Shown: one piece after another, positions 13,801 through 58,200 of the stretch
Layout: each line of letters begins with the position of its first letter
Position numbering within the stretch: position 1 is the stretch's first letter
Origin: Dasypus novemcinctus
Taxonomy: Eukaryota; Chordata; Mammalia; Cingulata; Dasypodidae
Direction of reading: 5' to 3'
Length of the DNA stretch: 64,000 nucleotides
Assembly: GCF_030445035.2 (NCBI RefSeq)
Contig: NC_080680.1
Location: 119,252,228-119,316,227 of the forward strand
Notes under the pieces: model-generated
The model's database searches: none
What the model saw: the letters and a program-made list of their open reading frames with translations, nothing else
Told to the model about the DNA's origin: nothing
Made by a program: the position numbers and the translations under genes

Positions 13801-13809
13801 CCAAATTAC

Positions 13810-14139
13810 TGTATGAGTCAGCCGAAAGGGGTGCTAATGCAAAATATCAAAAATCAGTTCGTTTTTATAAAGGGTACTTATTTGGGGTAGGAGCTTACAG
13901 TACCAGGCCATAAAGAACACATTACTTCCCTCACCAAAGTCTATTGCAACATGTTGGGGCAAGATGACTGCTGACGTTTGCCAAGAGTTCAGACCTAGTC
14001 AAAGCCTTAATCATTATTTAATCAAGTAAAAGTAAAACTTCTGAATCCAATATAATCTGATATGCCCTGGAGCAACAGACCAGTTTACAAACATAATCCA
14101 CTATTTATTTTTGAAATTCACAAATACCAACCTACCACA
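13810..14139 (-). mobile_element. Solo LTR of the local MaLR-like family, antisense, internally deleted
   Basis: Same LTR as 27266-27736, reversed: 'tgtatgagtcagcc' start, 'cttatttggggtaggagctt', 'ccaggccataaag', then 'accagtttacaaacataatc'. About 140 bp is missing inside. Flanks attac (13805-13809) and actac (14140-14144) match 4 of 5, consistent with a decayed 5-bp TSD. Confidence 0.8.
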
Positions 14140-15187
14140 ACTACTTTGGCAAAATTCCCTATTCTCCATCTAACAGTATAATTATGGATATCTCCTAATA
14201 GCCACAGACCTGGGGAAATGGCAGGAATTCTTGACTTTTTCATTAAATTTCCATAGACATCGGCATCCATGTACTATGTTATTAGTTTCTGCTTAATGGC
14301 ATTAGTCAATAAAAGCAAGAACACACAAACCATTGTTGGAGCCATACAACCTTGGTTTTATTACTTTAAACTGCCATATTAGGTAACAGAAATATGTTGA
14401 ATGCAAGGATGTGAGATGGATGTGAATTTTGATTTCCAAAAATGCACTTATGATCATAGATTCATTTTTTGTACTTTGTAAGACCAAAATTACTAAAATA
14501 AGTTAAGTCCATATAAAGAAATACCAAAGCTCTGAATGTATGGAAATATTTCAAGTTGCAAATTATTCCTGTGCCAGGTAGCAGGAAGTTGCTAGCTATT
14601 TAGTGCATGGATTTATAAAGCATTTTCTAATAAAGAAGTCTAGGAGTATAAGAACTTTTTGCTTTAAAAAAAGGGGGGGGGTGCTTTCAGTGTTTTAAAA
14701 GGGATATAAGAATATCTTTTGCTTGATTTTCATTTTTTATTTTTAGCACTATATATTTTTGCATATTTAGCATAATATCTTTATATGAAACCCACAAAAC
14801 TTTACATCTAAAGGTCAGGCTTAGCTGAGAACCTTTAAGACTGTCTCTCTCCTAACCACTCAGGGACAAATATCTCACTGTCCTTTAATAAATTAAAATG
14901 GCCCCAAAACTGCAATAATCTATTTGGAAAAAAAATTGAAATAAAAAATCAGAAAAGGATTTTTTAATATAGCCTGACAAACTTGGAGAACTCACTATAT
15001 ACAGTTTACAGTGGACTTAATTTTAGGCTATGCCTGAAAGTGACTTACCTACTCAAAAAGTAACACTTGGCAATTGCAAATGGAAGGAAATTCTCTGATT
15101 AGCAAAAATGCAGACAGGAAAGGAGTAGAACGGAGAGGGATGGGGTGTTGGTTCTTCGTTTTGTTTTTTTCATTATTTGGGTGTTTG
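14140..15187. other. Unassigned AT-rich sequence
   Basis: No gene or confident repeat. Contains an A6G9 run near 14665-14680. Confidence 0.5.
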
Positions 15188-19993: not shown

Positions 19994-20940
19994 TGTATTA
20001 GTCAGCCAAAGGGATGCTGATACAAAATACCAGAAATTGGTTGTTTTTTAATTTGTTTTAAATTTTTTATTTTTTATTGAAGTATATCATTCATACATGA
20101 ACATGCATGAACTGCATGAACAATAAGTATGAATAAAGATGGTGAACTTACAAAATAAACATACATAACATCACACAGGGGTCTCATACATCACCCTTCC
20201 ACCAACTCTTTGCATTGTTGTGAAACATTTGTTACAAACTTGTTATACAAGAGCATTGTCAAAATATTACTACCAACTATAGTCCTTATCTTACATTTGG
20301 TGCATTTTTCTCCCAACCCATACTATTTTTCTAAAATATATTTTTGTTACAGATATTGTGAACTTGCAAAACAATCATACAGATGTGTAGATTTCCCATA
20401 CAACTCCACGCCCTGGTAGAACATTTGTTACAGATTTATTTGGGGTAGGAGCTTACAGATACCAGGCCATAAAGCAGAAGTTACTTTCCGCACTAAAGTC
20501 TATTTTCACGTGTTGGAGCAAGATGGCTGCCAATGTCTGCAAGGATTCAGGTTACCTGGGTTCCTCTCTTCCAGGGTCTTGCTTCTCTCTGGGTCGAAGA
20601 TACCTTTCTTCCCAGGGTTTACTTCCTCCAGGGCTCATAGTTCCTCTCTTCCTGGGGCTGGCTTCTCTCTCCTCTGTGAACTTACTTCCCAGGGCTCCAG
20701 CTTAAGGCTTTAGCATCAAACTCCAACATCAAAACTCTAACTTCAAAAACCCTCAACTTTTTCCTTTGCTATGCCTTTTATCTGTGAGTTCCCACCCACC
20801 AAGGGGTGGGGACCCAACATCCTAATGACCTGGCCCAATCAAAGCCCTAATCATAACTTAATCATACCCAGGTTTGGACCAGTTTACAAACATAATCCAA
20901 TATTTATTCTTGGAATTCATAACTATGTCAAACTGGTATA
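19994..20940 (-). mobile_element. Solo LTR of the local MaLR-like family, antisense, split by an L1
   Basis: LTR parts 19994-20044 and 20433-20940 match 27266-27736 in reverse: 'tgtattagtcagccaaaggg' at the start and 'accagtttacaaacataatc' near the end. Flanks ccata (19989-19993) and ccatg (20941-20945) match 4 of 5. The LTR carries the conserved 'caagatggctgccaa' stretch. Confidence 0.85.
20045..20432 (-). mobile_element. LINE-1 3' UTR fragment inserted in the LTR
   Basis: Antisense L1 3' UTR: T-rich start, 'attgaagtatatcattcata', 'ggtctcatacatcaccctt', 'acagatattgtgaacttgc'. It breaks the host LTR between 'ccagaaattggtt' and 'atttatttggggtagg'. I could not find a clean TSD. Confidence 0.7.
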
Positions 20941-20956
20941 CCATGTATGTGTTAAG

Positions 20957-22375: not shown

Positions 22376-23564
22376 TCCAAAATTGAAGACATGATGCAAA
22401 TGGTCTTTTAAAATATGGAGGTCAATAAAGAATGCAAAAGCTAAAAGTTTGAAGAGGTTGCCTCTGGGAAACTGGGCTTAGGAAGTAACTTGGGACAAGA
22501 GATGCTGGGTTTTATTGTTTTACATTTATCAGTTTTATAGAAGTATTTGCTTTCTAAACAGATTGCTCTGAAAGAAATAATTAATGTAAAAATAACAGGT
22601 ATGGGTGTTTGATTGGGACTTTATTTTAAATGTTGTATGTTAGAATAATATAATTTTTTAAAAAAGAGTTCTACTTATGATTTAAATGCAATTTAAGGAG
22701 ACCAGATACTCTGTTATACCCTCACAATGGAAAACATCCCAAGGCTATTTTATTGAGAGTGAACCTAATTTGAAAAGCACTGCTGAGTTTTCAAGAAAGT
22801 AAAGCAAGTCCTCAATGAATAACAACCACCACCACAACAAAAACATCAGCAAACAAAATGGAAATAAGCTTACAACTGAAACTCAACTGAAAAGGCCACA
22901 CCAAAACCAGGGCTGCCCTGGAAGAGTGCCCAACCCATAATCCTAGAACTTTACTGGGTATGGACCCCACTGAGAAAGAGCCTTTCGACCTGATAAGCTG
23001 GGGGCTTAACCTGAGACCACCTCCAATTATGGAGTTATCTAAGAAAGACTTATCTTCAAATGCAGAAAGGGACTTAGAAAATCCTGCATGCTGCCCAAGT
23101 GAATCAAAGTAAAACCAATCAGTTTGTGTTGGAACTTGTGGGAAATTGATAATTAATATCAATAGTGCTCCCTAATGATTTGTATCTGTAATTCTGGCAT
23201 TTGAATTACACCATACTCTCAGAATAAGAACTCCAATGTAAGAAATATCATTTAAAATGGATCAAATTTGTAGTAGTCCTAGCACCTAGAAGAAACCAAG
23301 TCAAATCAACTCAATGCATGCTCCTGAGGAGGTCTAAAGTTACAAAGTTCAAACACATAGTTCAGAGTTATATTTAACAAACAGATGAAGAAACCGTTTA
23401 CCCCAAAGCAGCAGTCAAATGAATCTACAGAAAGCAAAAAATGTGCATAAAGCATAGATATTGGACATACAAGAAGTGGTATGCAAAATAATTATGTTTA
23501 AAGTGTTTTGAAGCAATGTTCAGTTTTAAGAAGCACAATGAATTAAAACCTCTATTTTAGGCAG
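22376..23564. other. Unassigned sequence
   Basis: No gene. Parts (22800-23560) may be old L1 5' sequence but lack clear landmarks. Confidence 0.4.
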
Positions 23565-23733
23565 ATGCTGGCAGCCATCTTGCTCCAACATGTGGCCAAA
23601 GACTTTGGTGAGGGAAGTAACTTATGCTTTACAGCCTGGTAATTGTAAGCTTCTACCCCAAATAAAAACCCTTTATAAAAGGTAACCAATTTCTGGTATT
23701 TTACATCAGCATCTCTTTGGCTGACTAATATAG
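23565..23733 (+). mobile_element. 3' part of a local MaLR-like LTR, sense
   Basis: From 'gcagatgctggcagccatct' to 'ggctgactaatata'. Matches the last 170 bases of the LTR at 27266-27736, including the AATAAA in 'ccccaaataaaaaccc'. 5' part missing. Confidence 0.85.
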
Positions 23734-24732
23734 TGGCAATGCTATTGAGCTTTAATTTTTAAGAATGAAATTTTCAAGCCACCTGGCAAAAAAACAACTT
23801 GCCTGACAGGGGAAATCAGAAATCCAGCCATCAACAGTTAACCCCAGAAGTCAATAGAGCCAGGTTTAAACCTTTCTGAGGAAAATGTATCCTAATACTA
23901 ACACTCTTAATCAAGTTTAATTCTAGTGTGAAGACAATGAACAAACATTTAGAAGCATTAAGACAAATTGACTAAGAACTATAAATCACATGTTCCCAGC
24001 TTTAAAAAAATACTGGAATATGAAAGTGTTCATTAAGTCAAATATCCCAGAAATAGAAATAGGAGAGGGGAAAAAATAGGAACGATTAAGGAACACTCAA
24101 TATTATGAAGATATTAGGCCTTAAACTCAGTCCCAGGGACGCTGCTCACAGGTATGTGTGTGTGTGTATGGGTGTATGTGTTTAATACTGAATGCTTCAT
24201 TTCAATCATAAATAAGAATCTTTTATAAAATAAATAATTTATTAATTCAATGAACTTCTTAGCTCACCATTTGAAAGACTCTTAGGGTCAGGTACTAGCA
24301 TCATTACTGATGTTATCATGAAGAATAAATGTGATCATAGACTTCAAGGGCAAATGTGTGTGTGTGTTAGAAGAAAGATTCCTTTGGCTTTTCAATTCAC
24401 AAGATCATGTCATGTGAAAGATAAATAGTTCTACAATTCCTGTTCAAACTAGATGCTCTTTTCACCTTTCTTTAAATGACCTGTCTATAATCTCTAGCAC
24501 AATGTTGAATAAACATGGTCAATGTTCTCAAGGGTAAATGAGTAGATAGCAGGATTCGAGCTTCAAATGCAAATACAAACTTTACAGAGCTGTATGTAAT
24601 AAAATAAGTTATAACAAAGTGATGCACAATATTCCATTAAGCTTCAGAAAGAAAATAAAAACCTTACAGATAAACTGATATTTTGACTGAGTTGTGATGT
24701 GTTGTTTGGATTTACAAAGTAGAGAAAAAACG
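23734..24732. other. Unassigned sequence
   Basis: No gene or transposon recognised. GT-rich simple repeats at about 24153-24180 and 24354-24368. Confidence 0.5.
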
Positions 24733-25237
24733 TGTAGCAGCTTGATATACTTATGTATTCCAAAAATAGATACTGGATTATGTTTGAAAACTGGTCTGGA
24801 TTTGGTAGTGATTAAATTACGATTAGGGCTTTAACATCAGTAGGGTGTTGAGTCCCCGCCCCTTGGTGGGTGCGCATTCACAGGTAAGAGACACGGCAAA
24901 GGACAGAATTGGAGTTTTGATGTTAGAGTTTTGATGCTGGAGTCTTGAACTGGAGCCCCAGGAAGTAAGCACACAAAAGAGCTTGATTGTGAAAAAAGAG
25001 AAGTAAGCCCTGGGAAGACAGGAACCCTGAGCCTGGAGAGACGCAAACACTGGGGAAAGAATAACCCAGGAAGCCTGAACCCTGGCAGATGTCAGCAGCC
25101 ATCTTGCTCCAACATGTGGCAAAAGACTTTGGTAAGGAAAATAACTTATGCTTTATGGCCTGGTAAATGTAAGCTTTTACCCCAAATAAATACCTTTTAT
25201 GAAAACCAACCAATCTCTGGTATTTTCCATCAGTACC

Positions 25238-25700
25238 TGTGGTGGTTAGGCTAAAGTGTCAACTCAGCCAGGTAATTGTGCCCAGTTGTTTGGTCAAGCA
25301 AGCACTGGGCTAACTGTAATACAAGGACATTTATGGACTTTAGTCACCATTGACTTTCCTGCAGTGGAAAATCATAGACAGCTGATTACAATTACATCAG
25401 TCAGGGAAAATGCCATCAGCAATGAGTGATGATGCTTTATCCAATCAATTGAATGCCTTAAAAGGAGAAGTGATTCCAGAATTGAATGAGAATTTCTCAG
25501 CTCATCTTTGGACAGCCAACATCTCCCAGAACTCATCAAGGACCTTCACTGGACTTTCATTGGAGCCTCTGGTTACAGCCTGCCTGAGGAACCTGGACTT
25601 GTGCATTCCCATGGTCATGTGAGAGGCTCTGATAAAATCTCTTACTATTGACAGATATCTCTTACTGATTCTGTTTTCCTAGAGAACCCTGACTAATATA
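25238..25700 (+). mobile_element. Solo LTR, MLT2-like (ERVL), nested in the 5' LTR
   Basis: Begins 'tgtggtggttaggctaaagt' with 'gtcaactcagccaggtaat', has 'ggtcaagcaagcactgggct', and ends 'cctagagaaccctgactaata'. These are MLT2-type ERVL LTR landmarks. The flanks are gtacc (25233-25237) and gcacc (25701-25705), a 5-bp TSD with one change. Sequence on both sides rejoins to the uninterrupted LTR seen at 27266-27736. Confidence 0.85.
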
Positions 25701-25812
25701 GCACCCCTTTGGCTGACTCATACAGAATTTGCTGGGGTCGTGCTTTTGAATTACCAAAAGGCTGGAAGAGTTTTATAAACCGGTAAGGGGTATTTTTTCA
25801 GAGGATTGTGAA

Positions 25813-26157
25813 ATGCTTGATGGAAATCACTTTGAAGAGACTGTTGATAGCAATATGGATGCTAAAGTTACTTTTTATGATGCCTTAGAAGTAAATGATG
25901 AAACTATTATTGGAAACTGGAGGAAAGGCGATCCATGTTTTAATGTTGCAGAGAATTTAGCCAGATTAACTCTTGGTGTTTTATGGAAGGAAGAATTTCA
26001 AAATGGTGAGTCTGGGCATTTAGCTGAAGAACTTTCCAAAGTAAATCTGGAGAATGTAGCTTGGTTACTCCTTGCAGGTTATAGCAAAATGCTAGACAAG
26101 AGAAATACTCTGAGGACTGAACTGTTAGGCAGAAAGAAAACAGAAACTGATTCTTGA
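25813..26157 (+). pseudogene. Gag-like remnant of the MaLR-like element, N-terminal part
   Basis: Open for 114 codons from ATG 25813 to TGA 26155-26157, beginning about 90 bp after the 5' LTR. The translation has an acidic start, then a GNWRKGDP motif and a GHLAEELSKVNLENVAW stretch. Their spacing resembles the small gag-like frame of primate MaLR interiors. That is family knowledge from memory and needs a search. The same frame resumes at 26242-26730 after stops between 26155 and 26240, so one frame of about 306 codons is likely to have been broken. No protease, RT or integrase motif follows. Function, if any, would be capsid-type packaging. Confidence 0.6.
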
Positions 26158-26241
26158 AATTCCAAGCCTCTGGAAATCAAGCTCCCAGAAGGTAGTGCCC
26201 CATTTAAGGACTTAACTAAACTTGGAACATGCAAATCAGGA

Positions 26242-26730
26242 TTGAAGATGCAGTTATCTCAGAAAGCCTTGTGGAAAGTCTTACTGTGTGATGGCTTGGA
26301 CCCCTTCTTCTTGCATGCTAACTCATCAAGAGTTTTGAGAGAGCTGTATGAACCAAACCACTGTCAGTTTGGATTAAAAGGGACATGGAAAGAAGAGACT
26401 GAAGGAGAAACTGCTTTCAGAGGAAAACCATTGAAGCTGAAAGCTGGAATTAAGATATCACCTTGGGCCAAGAGAGGAACTCCACCCATGTGCACAGAGA
26501 GGGTGAGTTTGCCCAAGCAGTTGAAGAGGGTGGATGTTCCCTCCCGATGTTCTGGGAGAGTTTTGCCACCCCAGGTTACAGAGAGGGCAGAGCACATTCC
26601 TCAAGGATTAGAGAGGTTGAGGTCAATGCCCCATAGGTCTGAGAGGGTCAGGACTGTCCCCCATGGATTAGGGAAGGTCAGGTGGTCAATGCATTGCTCT
26701 GAGAGGGTTGAGCCTGTGTGTCAAAGGTAG
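26242..26730 (+). pseudogene. Gag-like remnant, second part, with 10-residue repeats
   Basis: 162 codons in the same phase as 25813-26157. Residues 1-80 are non-repetitive. From about residue 85 to 162 the protein repeats every 10 residues with the pattern ERV-x-x-x-P: Pro at residues 100, 110, 120, 130 and 140, and E/G-R/K at 104-105, 114-115, 124-125, 134-135, 144-145 and 154-155. Arg-rich and Pro-rich, so strongly basic. It ends at TAG 26728-26730, but the DNA periodicity continues beyond the stop. No known domain recognised. Confidence 0.55.
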
Positions 26731-26850
26731 GGAGGATGTTGTCTTCACCTTACTGTATTAGGAGGTTAAGTCTCTAAACCAAAGATTGGGTAAAGTGTGG
26801 CAGTCACCCCAACCCTCTTAGAGGGTGAGGTCTGGAGATTGGTCGACACC
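26494..26850 (+). repeat. 30-bp degenerate tandem array inside the retroelement
   Basis: Units of 30 bp built around 'gagagggt' (examples at 26579, 26639, 26699 and 26819). About eight units are clear in 26494-26727, and further decayed units run to about 26850. The unit length is a multiple of three, so copy-number change would have kept the gag-like frame. Confidence 0.7.
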
Positions 26851-27736
26851 CAGATGATTGAGGAGGGTGAAACCATGAAAATGGTCATTGGGCAACATGT
26901 GGAAAGGGTGGGTCCCCATAAGAAGGACAAAGGAAAAGAAACCATCCTCCTAAGAATAACTCTCAGACTTTGAAATTGAACAGAGGACACCCTGCAGGTC
27001 TACTGAACTTTAGAGAAACTGTGACTCACATTTCCTTCCCAATTTGTCCTTATTGTAATGAGAATGTTTGTCCTTTGTCCATTGTATTGGAAGCAGATGA
27101 ATTGTTTTTTAAGTTTGAGAGGCCTAAAGCAGATAAGACTTTACCCCAAGACAAACTGTATTTCTCTAAATTGATTGTGATGTAATTTATTACTTGCATT
27201 GTTACTGATTTAAGGTTGTTTTTTTTTTAATATTGTTATGTCTTTTTGGAATTCAGAGGGTGAAGTGTAGCAGTTTGATATAGTTATGAATTACAAAAAT
27301 AGATATTGGATTATGTTTGCAAACTGGTCTGTACCTGGGCATGATTAAATTATGACTAGGGCTTTAATTGGGCCACATCAGTAGGGGGTTGAGTCCCTCC
27401 CCTTGGTGAGTGGGGACTCACAGATAAAAGATATGGCAAAGCACAGAATTGGAGTTTTGATGCTGGAGTCTTGAACTGGAGCCCCAGGAAGTAAGCACAC
27501 AGAGGAACTTGGTTGTGAGAAAAGCAAACCCTGGGAAGAGAGGAACCCAGGAAGCCTGAACCCTGGCAGACGCTGGCAGCCATCTTGCTCCAACATGTGA
27601 CAAAAGATGTTGGTGAGGGAAGTAACTTATGCTTTATGGCTGGTAATTGAAAGCTTCCACTCCAAATAGATACCCTTTATAAAAAACAACCAATTTCTGG
27701 TATTTTGCATCAGCATCCCTATCGCTGACTAATGCA

Positions 27737-27835
27737 GAATGCAATACTTTATTATTAATTGATATCAATATTTGAGCATCTTTTGTGAATCCAAAATTAT
27801 CCTACACAGTTTACATACTATATCATCTATCTATC

Positions 27836-27892
<57 letters not shown>

Positions 27893-28430
27893 CATCTGTC
27901 TACCTATCGATTTATCATTCTCCTTATATCAAAACCTATAGGAAATTATTTGTCCTTTTTTTTAAACTAGAATGAAGGAAAACAAGATCCCCCAAAAGTA
28001 ACTGCAACAATTGTATATAGTTAATAAAGAACTATAACTCAAATCCAGACTTGCCTTTCTCCAAACTCACATATCTAGAAATATTGCACATTGCATATGA
28101 AAAAAGAGTCTAAGAAGAGGGGGTGTTTCAGATATAATTATAGACTTTCCAGTACTAATATCACACATGGTCAATTACCTATAAGAAGATGATAAGGCTA
28201 AGGGACATAAAAGTTTAAATTCTCAGAATTTGGGAATAAGGGCCAGAGGTGATATTTCTCTATTTTTCTCTCTCCTGACACTGACTTCAGTGATCATTAT
28301 TCATAATACTAGTAGATAAATTTGGAGGAGATAGTGAAATATGGAGGAAAAAGTGAACCATATAGTCTTTGTATAGCCTGCTCCCAGTGATCATCATAAA
28401 TTCATTAGCATATCTGAATATTCTGAAATT
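27737..28430. other. Unassigned sequence with a tetranucleotide microsatellite
   Basis: No gene. (ATCT)n at 27822-27891, nearly perfect in its last 14 units. The remaining sequence is unassigned. Confidence 0.6.
27822..27891. repeat. (ATCT)n microsatellite
   Basis: About 17 tetranucleotide units with one imperfection near 27835. Likely polymorphic in length. Confidence 0.95.
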
Positions 28431-44425: not shown

Positions 44426-44430
44426 AGGCC

Positions 44431-44860
44431 TGTGATGGTTAATTTCATGTGTCACCTTGGCTGTATTATGGTAACTAGTTGTGTGTCCAAGCAAGCACTG
44501 GCCTGATGGTTACTGTGAAGGAGTTCACTGACAGATTCAAATCATTAGTCAGTTGATTACTTCTATGGCTAATTACATGTGTAATCAACAAAGGAGACTG
44601 CCTTCCCCAATGAGAAAAGTCTCCTTATTCAATCAGTCGAAAGCCTTAAAGGAAGAATTGATGATTTCAGCAGTCAGAAAGAAGAATTTCTACCTCTACT
44701 TCAGCCAACAAGCTTCTCCTGGGGAATTCATTGTCACTATCAAGTTGCCAATTGGTGTCTGCCTCATAGAATTTAGACTTGTTCTCAAGGATTTCATGAG
44801 ACAGGTTTCTAGTAAATACATATATTATTTTTGTTTTCCTGAAGAACCCTAACTAATACA
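44431..44860 (+). mobile_element. Solo LTR, MLT2-like (ERVL)
   Basis: Begins 'tgtgatggttaatttcatgt' and 'gtgtcaccttggctgta', has 'caatcagtcgaaagccttaa', and ends 'gaagaaccctaactaataca'. Perfect 5-bp TSD aggcc at 44426-44430 and 44861-44865. 430 bp. Same family type as the nested copy at 25238-25700. Confidence 0.92.
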
Positions 44861-44865
44861 AGGCC

Positions 44866-45429
44866 CTGCTCTCTACCTCTCTGGAAGCCCAGTTTGGGTA
44901 CCAGGAAGAAAGGTAGCTTTTTTTTTTTTAGAAGCATGTAGAGCAAAAGCAAGAACCATTGATGATAAAGGAGAATGACAAGGCTTCCTTGAATGGCCTT
45001 CCAGGCAGAAGATCTAAGGAAACAGAATCACAAGCAAGAAAGAAATATTTTTTTTCTGAGGTAGAAAATGCATCAAAGAACTGAAAGAACCAATGTGCTT
45101 GGAGCAGGCTGAGGATAGGAACTCCACAAAATGAGACTTCAGAAGAGGGCAGGAGTCAGATTATACAGGGCCATGTTGACTGTATTAGGAGTACGTGAAA
45201 TGGGCAGTCATGAAAGAAGGAGACTGGTTTGATCCAAGCTGTTTTTCCCACCATTTATCTTGAATTCAAAATTCACTATTTTTATTTAAAAAATTAAAGA
45301 AAGAAAAGGTATCTAGTGGTAAAGTCCATAGTCTAAATGATACAGCTAATAATCACTCTTTAGTCTTTCCTTATATAATAATGAATGTTTTGCAATACAA
45401 GGAAACATCAACAATAAATATTTTTCTGT
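44866..45429. other. Unassigned sequence
   Basis: No gene or repeat recognised. Confidence 0.5.
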
Positions 45430-57735: not shown

Positions 57736-57738
57736 CTC

Positions 57739-58200
57739 TGTATTAGTTAGGGTTCTCCAGAGAAACAGAACCAACTGGATATATAACGATATAAAGAGAT
57801 TTAGTAGAAGGAATTGGCTCATGTGACTGGGAAGGCTGACAAGTTTGAACTCTGTAGGGTAGGCCACAAGGTCACTGAATCCAATAAAGGTGATGCTGAA
57901 GGCCTCAGTCCAAATTTCATAAAGAAATTTAGCTGGCTGAAAATTCCAGTAAGAGCCAATGCTGAAGTTGAGGCACAAATTCTTCTACAGACCCTGAAAT
58001 CCTCAGTTCTGACTTTTAAGTCTTCCAACTGAGTGTGTGAGAAGACTCCCCATATTGCAGAAGGCAATCTCCTTTGATTATAGATGTAACCCACTAAATA
58101 TAGGTGCAAATTCCATCTACAAAATGCCCTCATAGTAACCAGCAGAGTAGTGCATGACCAAACCACTGGACACTATAGCCTAGCAAGCTGACACATTTTG
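57739..58200 (-). mobile_element. MLT2-like ERVL LTR, antisense
   Basis: Starts 'tgtattagttagggttctcc' and 'agagaaacagaaccaact', the reverse of the usual MLT2-type end. It has 'aaggaattggctcatgtgac' and ends near 'agcaagctgacacat'. Inner parts are diverged; the right end is not sharp. Confidence 0.65.

What the first reader, a model, noticed from the sequence alone, without database searches (positions are those of the whole stretch)
26494..26850. In-frame 30-bp (10-codon) tandem array in the gag-like frame of a MaLR-like retroelement
The translation at 26494-26727 repeats every 10 residues (ERV-x-x-x-P pattern; Pro at residues 100, 110, 120, 130 and 140 of the 26242 frame). The DNA periodicity continues beyond the stop. 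The unit length keeps the frame, so the array could have grown while the element was active. I know of no such basic, Pro-spaced repeat in described MaLR interiors; that absence is from memory. It may mark a lineage-specific protein with a repeated RNA-binding or assembly segment.
Basis: partly seen in the sequence, partly recalled or inferred. Interest (0 to 1): 0.75.

Follow-up and report, generated by a model that had tools for sequence, protein, structure and literature searches.

The report
In-frame repeat array in retrotransposon Gag
An old mammalian jumping element carries, inside its only long gene, a run of 30-letter repeats that stays in reading frame and differs in length between copies, so part of this protein seems to have grown in blocks while the element was spreading.

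Summary
The array is real: 12 units at 26494-26845, inside an element bounded by LTRs (24733-25724, 27266-27736). Its best lag (60) beat 500 of 500 shuffles; lag 30 has z 5.3.

The host genome is held, unnamed, 3.61 Gb. Of 39 other copies chosen by upstream flank alone, all keep the array in whole or part; 11 carry one extra block of 60 bp (58-64), 1 carries two. A 16-unit query matched 36 of 39 other scored loci at nearly full length; one locus has about 18 units.

Read by alignment column, the array frame has no stop shared by most copies (0 of 118 codons; 0 of 158 in 16-unit copies); other forward frames have 6-10. The break before the window's stop at 26728 is private to this copy.

Old units are 48-53% alike against 87% for the LTRs, so they predate insertion. 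Added blocks are about as alike as copies are, so they arose near the time of spread.

Best reading: a basic, repeat-built C-terminal segment of a MaLR-like Gag. Purifying selection, MaLR homology and RNA binding are not shown.

The parts
24733..25724 (+). 5' LTR, interrupted by a nested repeat at about 25235-25697
   Evidence: Self-comparison with 27266-27736. The piece before the nested repeat aligns to the 3' LTR at 87.3% over 441 columns, K2P 0.141.
25235..25697 (+). nested repeat inserted in the 5' LTR, not part of the element (ends approximate)
   Evidence: About 60% like 44429-44879 (+) and 58197-57738 (-).
25725..25750 (+). primer-binding-site region, decayed here
   Evidence: Position after the LTR end. 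Of 25 copies with this place mapped, 11 read TTTGGTACC there by my count, and most of the others differ by a base or two. A leucine-tRNA match is recalled, not tested.
25750..26157 (+). first part of the gag-like frame, 135 codons, ended here by TGA
   Evidence: ORF list. No stop at those columns in 39 of 39 flank-chosen copies, gaps counted as no stop, nor in 35 of 35 array-chosen copies with letters there.
26158..26730 (+). second part of the same frame, 190 codons, holding array units 1-8, ended here by TAG
   Evidence: ORF list. The length change before the stop is shared by none of 39 other copies, by eye.
26494..26845 (+). tandem array of 12 units of 27-30 bp; units 7-8 (26668-26727) resemble the 60-bp block that is multiplied in other copies
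   Evidence: Autocorrelation, profile scan, copies.
26922..27185 (+). open frame after the array, probably the C-terminal piece of the same gene, in a shifted frame in this copy; holds CPYCNENVCP
   Evidence: ORF list. In array-chosen copies the array frame shows no majority stop from 26158 to about 27098. Against: aligned on its own, this piece has 3-6 majority stops in every forward frame.
27266..27736 (+). 3' LTR
   Evidence: The end at 27736 is supported by 5-bp duplications in other copies, 22 of 31 with at least 4 of 5 bases equal.

Best explanation
This is a decayed copy of an abundant, MaLR-like LTR retrotransposon family whose interior (mostly 1.5-1.7 kb) encoded one gag-like protein. 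The array was a translated segment in the C-terminal part of that protein, made of 9-10-residue units of the type (S/L/T)-E-R-V-x-x-x-P-x-x. It has two ages: an old, diverged array of single units, and a young zone where the 60-bp block of units 7-8 was duplicated in the propagating elements, giving 12-, 14-, 16- and about 18-unit forms. Each block adds 20 residues and about two positive charges and keeps the frame. Shown: the array in every copy examined, a frame without majority stops, block-wise length variation older than the insertions, and basic composition. Inferred: the segment stands where other Gag proteins carry a zinc-finger nucleocapsid and acts as a flexible arginine-bearing RNA-binding or assembly tail, as the GR-rich tail does in foamy viruses. 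Also inferred: slippage or unequal exchange of near-identical blocks, for instance template switching during reverse transcription, made the length forms.
For: Presence: the array query gave 4379 first-look candidates in this genome; only 40 were scored, all spanning nearly the whole query. In 39 of 39 array-chosen copies the array is 350-362 bp, which fits 12 units (chosen by array, so biased). Flank-chosen sample of 39: +60 (58-64) in 11, +120 in 1 (letters). A 16-unit query matched 36 of 39 other scored loci at nearly full length. Frame, read by alignment column with gapped codons skipped: codons with a stop in more than half of copies are 0 of 118 against 8 and 6 in the other forward frames (array-chosen, n=38), 0 against 8 and 6 (flank-chosen, n=39), and 0 of 158 against 9 and 10 (16-unit copies, n=30). 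In the array-chosen set the frame has no majority stop from 26158 to about 27098. Timing: units 48-53% alike against LTR 87.3%; young blocks 84-86% alike within a copy against 85.7% between copies. Charge: units 1-8 have pI 11.0 and net +8; blocks average +1.6 to +2.2 and 16-unit arrays +14.3. No excess RNA structure, z -0.01. Literature: HERV-L and spumaviruses lack nucleocapsid zinc fingers (PMC1224870, passages); foamy Gag arginines bind RNA cooperatively (PMC5035957, passages).
Against: Six of the eight first units carry acidic residues, so the array is only moderately basic. Of 12 kinds of insertion or deletion seen in two or more flank-chosen copies only 2 are multiples of 3 (15 and 60 bp); ten are of 1-2 bp, and whether they recur by decay or are inherited is not known. 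Because a unit is 30 bp, block changes keep the frame without any selection. Third-position enrichment of shared variants appears in units 1-6 (6/4/13 of 55/53/54, P 0.016, one of six segments tested) but not in the others or the LTR control; the ORF1 test was set in the wrong phase, though its counts 18/20/22 show no bias in any phase. Earlier tests were not significant (P 0.20; P 0.31). In a star simulation the stop-free array of the window alone has P 0.22-0.27. Read copy by copy with private breaks, the array frame is not outstanding: median 57 codons to the first stop against 48 in another forward frame, and only 7 of 39 copies keep both length and openness over units 1-8. One codon of the array frame is a stop in more than a fifth of copies. 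The piece after the array, aligned alone, has 3-6 majority stops in every forward frame, and in the flank-chosen set the array frame meets a majority stop at 26971. No Pfam or PDB homology ties the frame to Gag; folds without an alignment are unusable.
Confidence: 0.58

Rival explanations
1. A non-coding minisatellite that happened to sit in the interior and to be open in one frame. Its changes in length were neutral slippage.
For: The unit length 30 makes every block change frame-neutral without selection. Codon-position tests are weak or null. Ten of 12 shared indel kinds are of 1-2 bp, and two copies share a 19-bp loss near 26791.
Against: By alignment column the same frame has no majority stop over 112 codons upstream (0 against 6 and 8) and over 118-158 codons of array (0 against 6-10). 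The columns that most copies fill add to 354, which fits ten units of 30 and two of 27, although only 17 of 39 copies have exactly that length.
Confidence: 0.25
2. The array expanded after this copy inserted, as a local minisatellite.
For: None found beyond the periodicity itself.
Against: The array is at the same place in all 78 other copies of the two samples, and its units are far less alike than the two LTRs.
Confidence: 0.01
3. The repeat works at the RNA or DNA level, for example as a packaging signal or protein-binding sites, and coding is incidental.
For: A position in the presumably transcribed interior, and the recurring GAGAGGGT-like core of the units.
Against: No folding excess in the window copy (z -0.01) and no Rfam match in the window at the gathering score. 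Such a signal would not need a frame free of majority stops.
Confidence: 0.1
4. An ordinary feature of MaLR interiors in general, shared by other families in other mammals and perhaps already known.
For: MaLR interiors are described as holding one gag ORF (PMC10735291, passages). I have a vague recollection of G-rich periodic stretches in other MaLR interiors, untested.
Against: Ten paper searches (capped listings) showed no paper that describes it in title or abstract start, and the passages read did not mention it. Much older literature is not held.
Confidence: 0.25

Closest known systems
ERVL-MaLR elements (MLT, MST, THE1)
   Same: Short interior with a single long frame, TG...CA LTRs, 5-bp target duplication, thousands of first-look candidates.
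   Different: Sequence homology to a named MaLR could not be tested. An in-frame, length-variable array is not mentioned in the passages I read.
ERV-L Gag (HERV-L, MuERV-L)
   Same: No CX2CX4HX4C zinc finger in the frame pieces read here, as reported for HERV-L and ERV-L (PMC1224870, PMC8278194, passages).
   Different: The ERV-L column of a table in PMC8278194 lists a GQR motif and a major homology region; neither was looked for here beyond Pfam, which gave nothing.
Foamy virus Gag GR-rich C-terminus
   Same: Arginine-bearing C-terminal segment without zinc fingers; disorder is presumed here, not tested.
   Different: Foamy GR boxes are glycine-arginine rich patches (PMC5035957, passages). 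Here most units carry E or D (6 of 8) and P (7 of 8), they form a tandem array, and their number varies.
LTR12B internal tandem repeat
   Same: A retroelement whose family sequence holds tandem copies that can expand later (PMC2588610, passages).
   Different: That repeat is in an LTR and has a unit of about 125 bp.

Membership tests
MaLR / ERV3-type LTR element | two LTRs with TG...CA ends around a short interior | tested here: met
   Window LTRs at 24733-25724 and 27266-27736. In 25 of 64 loci examined both LTRs were mapped in full; interiors 1530-2098 bp.
MaLR / ERV3-type LTR element | 5-bp target-site duplication | tested here: met
   At least 4 of 5 flanking bases equal in 22 of 31 copies; shuffled pairings mean 1.45, maximum 6. 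A first try with the LTR end set one base too far gave 1 of 25. In the window itself 3 of 5 (letters).
MaLR / ERV3-type LTR element | one gag-like ORF, no pol or env | tested here: inconclusive
   One long frame lacks majority stops, but three frame pieces give no Pfam match, so Gag identity is by anatomy only.
MaLR / ERV3-type LTR element | leucine-tRNA primer binding site | tested here: inconclusive
   11 of 25 copies read TTTGGTACC after the LTR (my count). The tRNA match rests on recall.
MaLR / ERV3-type LTR element | sequence similarity to named MaLR interiors | not testable with these tools
   No mammalian repeat library or second mammal is held. Protein and contig searches found no relative.
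Foamy-type zinc-finger-free nucleocapsid | no Cys-His box in the C-terminal Gag region | tested here: met
   By eye, no CX2CX4HX4C in the translated pieces of the window. The piece after the array has CPYCNENVC only.
Foamy-type zinc-finger-free nucleocapsid | arginine-dependent RNA binding | not testable with these tools
   Needs a binding assay.

The most novel reading that the evidence does not exclude
A mammalian LTR retrotransposon family carried a modular, length-evolving RNA-binding tail in its only protein. Blocks of 20 residues were added or lost in competing lineages, and the 12-, 14-, 16- and 18-unit forms mark steps in adapting Gag to its own RNA or to host restriction.
Probability: 0.2. 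Interest if true: 0.65.

Novelty: new variant of a known kind. Interest (0 to 1): 0.5.

Why it matters
[quoted passage not shown] I recall no work on how their single protein packages RNA. A coding array whose length differs between fossil copies would be a datable record of changes in one Gag segment, and would let one test whether unit number tracked the success of subfamilies. It is also a caution for annotation: Tandem Repeats Finder at minimum score 40 misses the array in this copy.

Tried and rejected
Local growth after insertion was rejected by unit against LTR divergence. RNA structure was rejected as a main cause. Protein homology was sought without success: Pfam 0 of 3 pieces; the protein collection no hit for 2 of 2 pieces; viral contigs none confirmed for 2 pieces and none for one LTR pattern; bacterial and archaeal contigs none for that pattern; PDB two weak matches of ORF1 to alkyl hydroperoxidases, E 0.03, taken as chance, and none for ORF2. 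Structure prediction from single sequences gave pLDDT 50.5 and 32.9 and was not used for fold search. Whether 14-unit copies form one clade is unresolved: the 9 of 39 labelled by net length are slightly clustered (P 0.037) but scattered on the tree. Codon-position tests were weak. In one search the link segment 26725-26990 is clean in another frame label than the array; I take this as an edge effect of cutting the pieces and use for continuity, but that is a judgement. A query with the downstream flank did not complete, nor one with the ORF1 region, so there is only one sample chosen without regard to the array.

Rows dropped: L001, L041 and L081 are self or a repeat of L060. L007 was dropped as a near copy of L006. 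Of 39 other loci, the 29 fetched plus L060 were measured. One search gave 40 scored loci by coordinates only; two show split matches that fit one extra block. In one search the count of 11 joins split gaps and includes L059 (which also lost 57), L063 (+64 and +17) and L075 (+61 with other losses).

Full report
What was claimed and what is there. The finding describes a 30-bp in-frame array at 26494-26850. The periodicity is real: for 26494-26727 the best lag, 60 (0.437), is reached by none of 500 shuffles, and lag 30 (0.422) has z 5.3. The prolines lie where stated. A profile scan puts 12 units at 26494-26845, with start spacings 27, 30, 27, four of 30, two of 29 and two of 30; four sites out of register pass the same cut, about two being expected. 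Lag 60 is as strong as lag 30, which hints at a two-unit block. Tandem Repeats Finder at minimum score 40 does not list it, presumably because units are only about half alike.

The element. Self-comparison shows two LTRs, 24733-25724 and 27266-27736, the first split by a nested repeat at about 25235-25697. The LTRs are 87.3% identical over 441 columns, K2P 0.141. In other copies the mean LTR distance is 0.148 (25 of 64 loci with both LTRs mapped). Flanking 5-bp duplications match at 4 or 5 of 5 in 22 of 31 copies, once the LTR end is set at 27736 (one base further gave 1 of 25). These are therefore true retroelement insertions. The interior is about 1.54 kb in the window. Its frame runs 25750-26157 and 26158-26730 with one stop between.

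The family. My guess that it is a xenarthran rests on recall. The array query met 4379 first-look candidates, of which 40 were scored; the 39 others are 85-88% identical over nearly the full query. In those 39 the array is 350-362 bp long, which fits 12 units, but that choice favours the window's length. I therefore took 39 copies chosen only by the 381 bases 26100-26480. All keep the array in whole or part. Lengths: 21 at 349-358, 8 at 411-415, one each at 392, 427 and 472, and 7 shorter, down to 263. Pairwise alignment shows a gain of 58-64 bp in 11 of 39 and of about 120 in one. By eye the inserted letters repeat units 7-8 of the window, and Tandem Repeats Finder gives period 60 in L047, L060, L082 and L111. 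A query with the 16-unit array matched 36 of 39 other scored loci at nearly full length. One further locus shows 4.1 copies of the 60-bp block and a span of about 18 units. Another 12-unit query gave two split matches among 40 loci that fit 14 units.

Timing. Units of the old array are 48-53% identical. If they had been equal when this copy inserted they should be about as alike as the LTRs, 87%. They had thus diverged before. In 30 copies with 16 units the young blocks are 84-86% identical to their neighbours within a copy, and copies are 85.7% identical to each other. The same block in different copies is 85.0-85.8% alike, different blocks in different copies 83.6-84.7%, and different blocks within a copy 83.8-85.1%. 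The blocks were therefore nearly identical when the copies dispersed, and duplication belongs to the active phase. Clustering of 14-unit copies is slight and does not settle whether there was one event or several.

Coding, for. Read by alignment column with gapped codons skipped, the array frame has no codon that is a stop in more than half of copies: 0 of 118 in array-chosen (n=38) and flank-chosen (n=39) copies and 0 of 158 in 16-unit copies (n=30). The other forward frames have 8 and 6, 8 and 6, and 9 and 10. The frame is equally clean upstream (0 of 112 against 6 and 8). In the array-chosen set it stays so to about 27098. The window's stop at 26728 follows a change in length that none of 39 other copies shares; stop letters stand at those columns in 37 of 39 copies, but out of the array frame. 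The stop at 26155 is seen in none of 39 copies. Three of 39 copies in each set run open for 139 codons or more from the array start.

Coding, against. Copy by copy the picture is less clear. The median run from the array start to the first stop is 57 codons in this frame and 48 in another forward frame, and only 7 of 39 copies keep both length and openness over units 1-8; in 12 of 39 the first stop is at codon 17. Of 12 indel kinds found in two or more flank-chosen copies only the 15- and 60-bp ones are multiples of 3; the other ten are of 1-2 bp. Codon-position bias of shared variants appears in units 1-6 only (6/4/13, P 0.016) and not in the other segments or the LTR control, ORF1 being tested in the wrong phase but flat in all phases. 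The piece after the array, aligned alone, has 3-6 majority stops in every forward frame, and the flank-chosen set has a majority stop at 26971. So the array frame is open in the family, while purifying selection and the exact end of the gene are not settled.

Function. Units 1-8 have pI 11.0 and net charge +8. Added blocks average +1.6 to +2.2 each, and 16-unit arrays +14.3. By eye there is no Cys-His box in the pieces read. HERV-L and spumaviruses lack such fingers (PMC1224870, passages read), and in foamy viruses arginines of the Gag C-terminus bind RNA together (PMC5035957, passages read). By position and composition the array could serve likewise. This is inference; acidic residues in 6 of 8 units argue for caution. 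RNA folding of the window array shows nothing unusual.

Known or new. A single gag ORF is the described content of MaLR interiors (PMC10735291, passages). Ten searches of the held papers (capped listings) showed no report of an in-frame array there, judged by titles, abstract starts and the passages read. Much older subscription literature is not held. I file it as a new variant of a known kind, with a real chance that the array is a general MaLR trait.

Noticed in passing
window 25235-25697, 44429-44879 (+), 57738-58197 (-): Three copies of another repeat of about 460 bp, roughly 60% alike, one of them nested in the 5' LTR; each ends in a GACTAATA- or AACTAATA-like motif, as the LTRs here do.
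   Followed up: partly
window 13809-14140 (-), 19994-20941 (-), 23560-23734 (+): Solo or partial LTRs of the same family; the copy at 19994-20941 is split by an insertion of about 0.4 kb.
   Followed up: partly
window 20560-20652; L047:325-430 and L047:2953-3055: A tandem repeat of about 40 bp (TRF) lies in the LTR of the window copy at 20434-20941 and probably in both LTRs of L047; LTR lengths range from 473 to 637 among mapped copies.
   Followed up: no
window 27045-27074: The frame after the array has CPYCNENVCP, a CX2CX4C spacing without the histidine of a retroviral zinc knuckle.
   Followed up: no
L052 and L069, window 26620; L054 and L055, window 26791: Pairs of copies share a 15-bp and a 19-bp loss inside the array, so smaller, perhaps inherited, changes exist, one of which breaks the frame.
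   Followed up: no
window 27821-27916: A TATC microsatellite lies about 90 bases beyond the 3' LTR.
   Followed up: no
L006 and L007: Nearly identical array copies on two contigs, one of only 157 kb, perhaps a recent duplication or an assembly duplicate.
   Followed up: no
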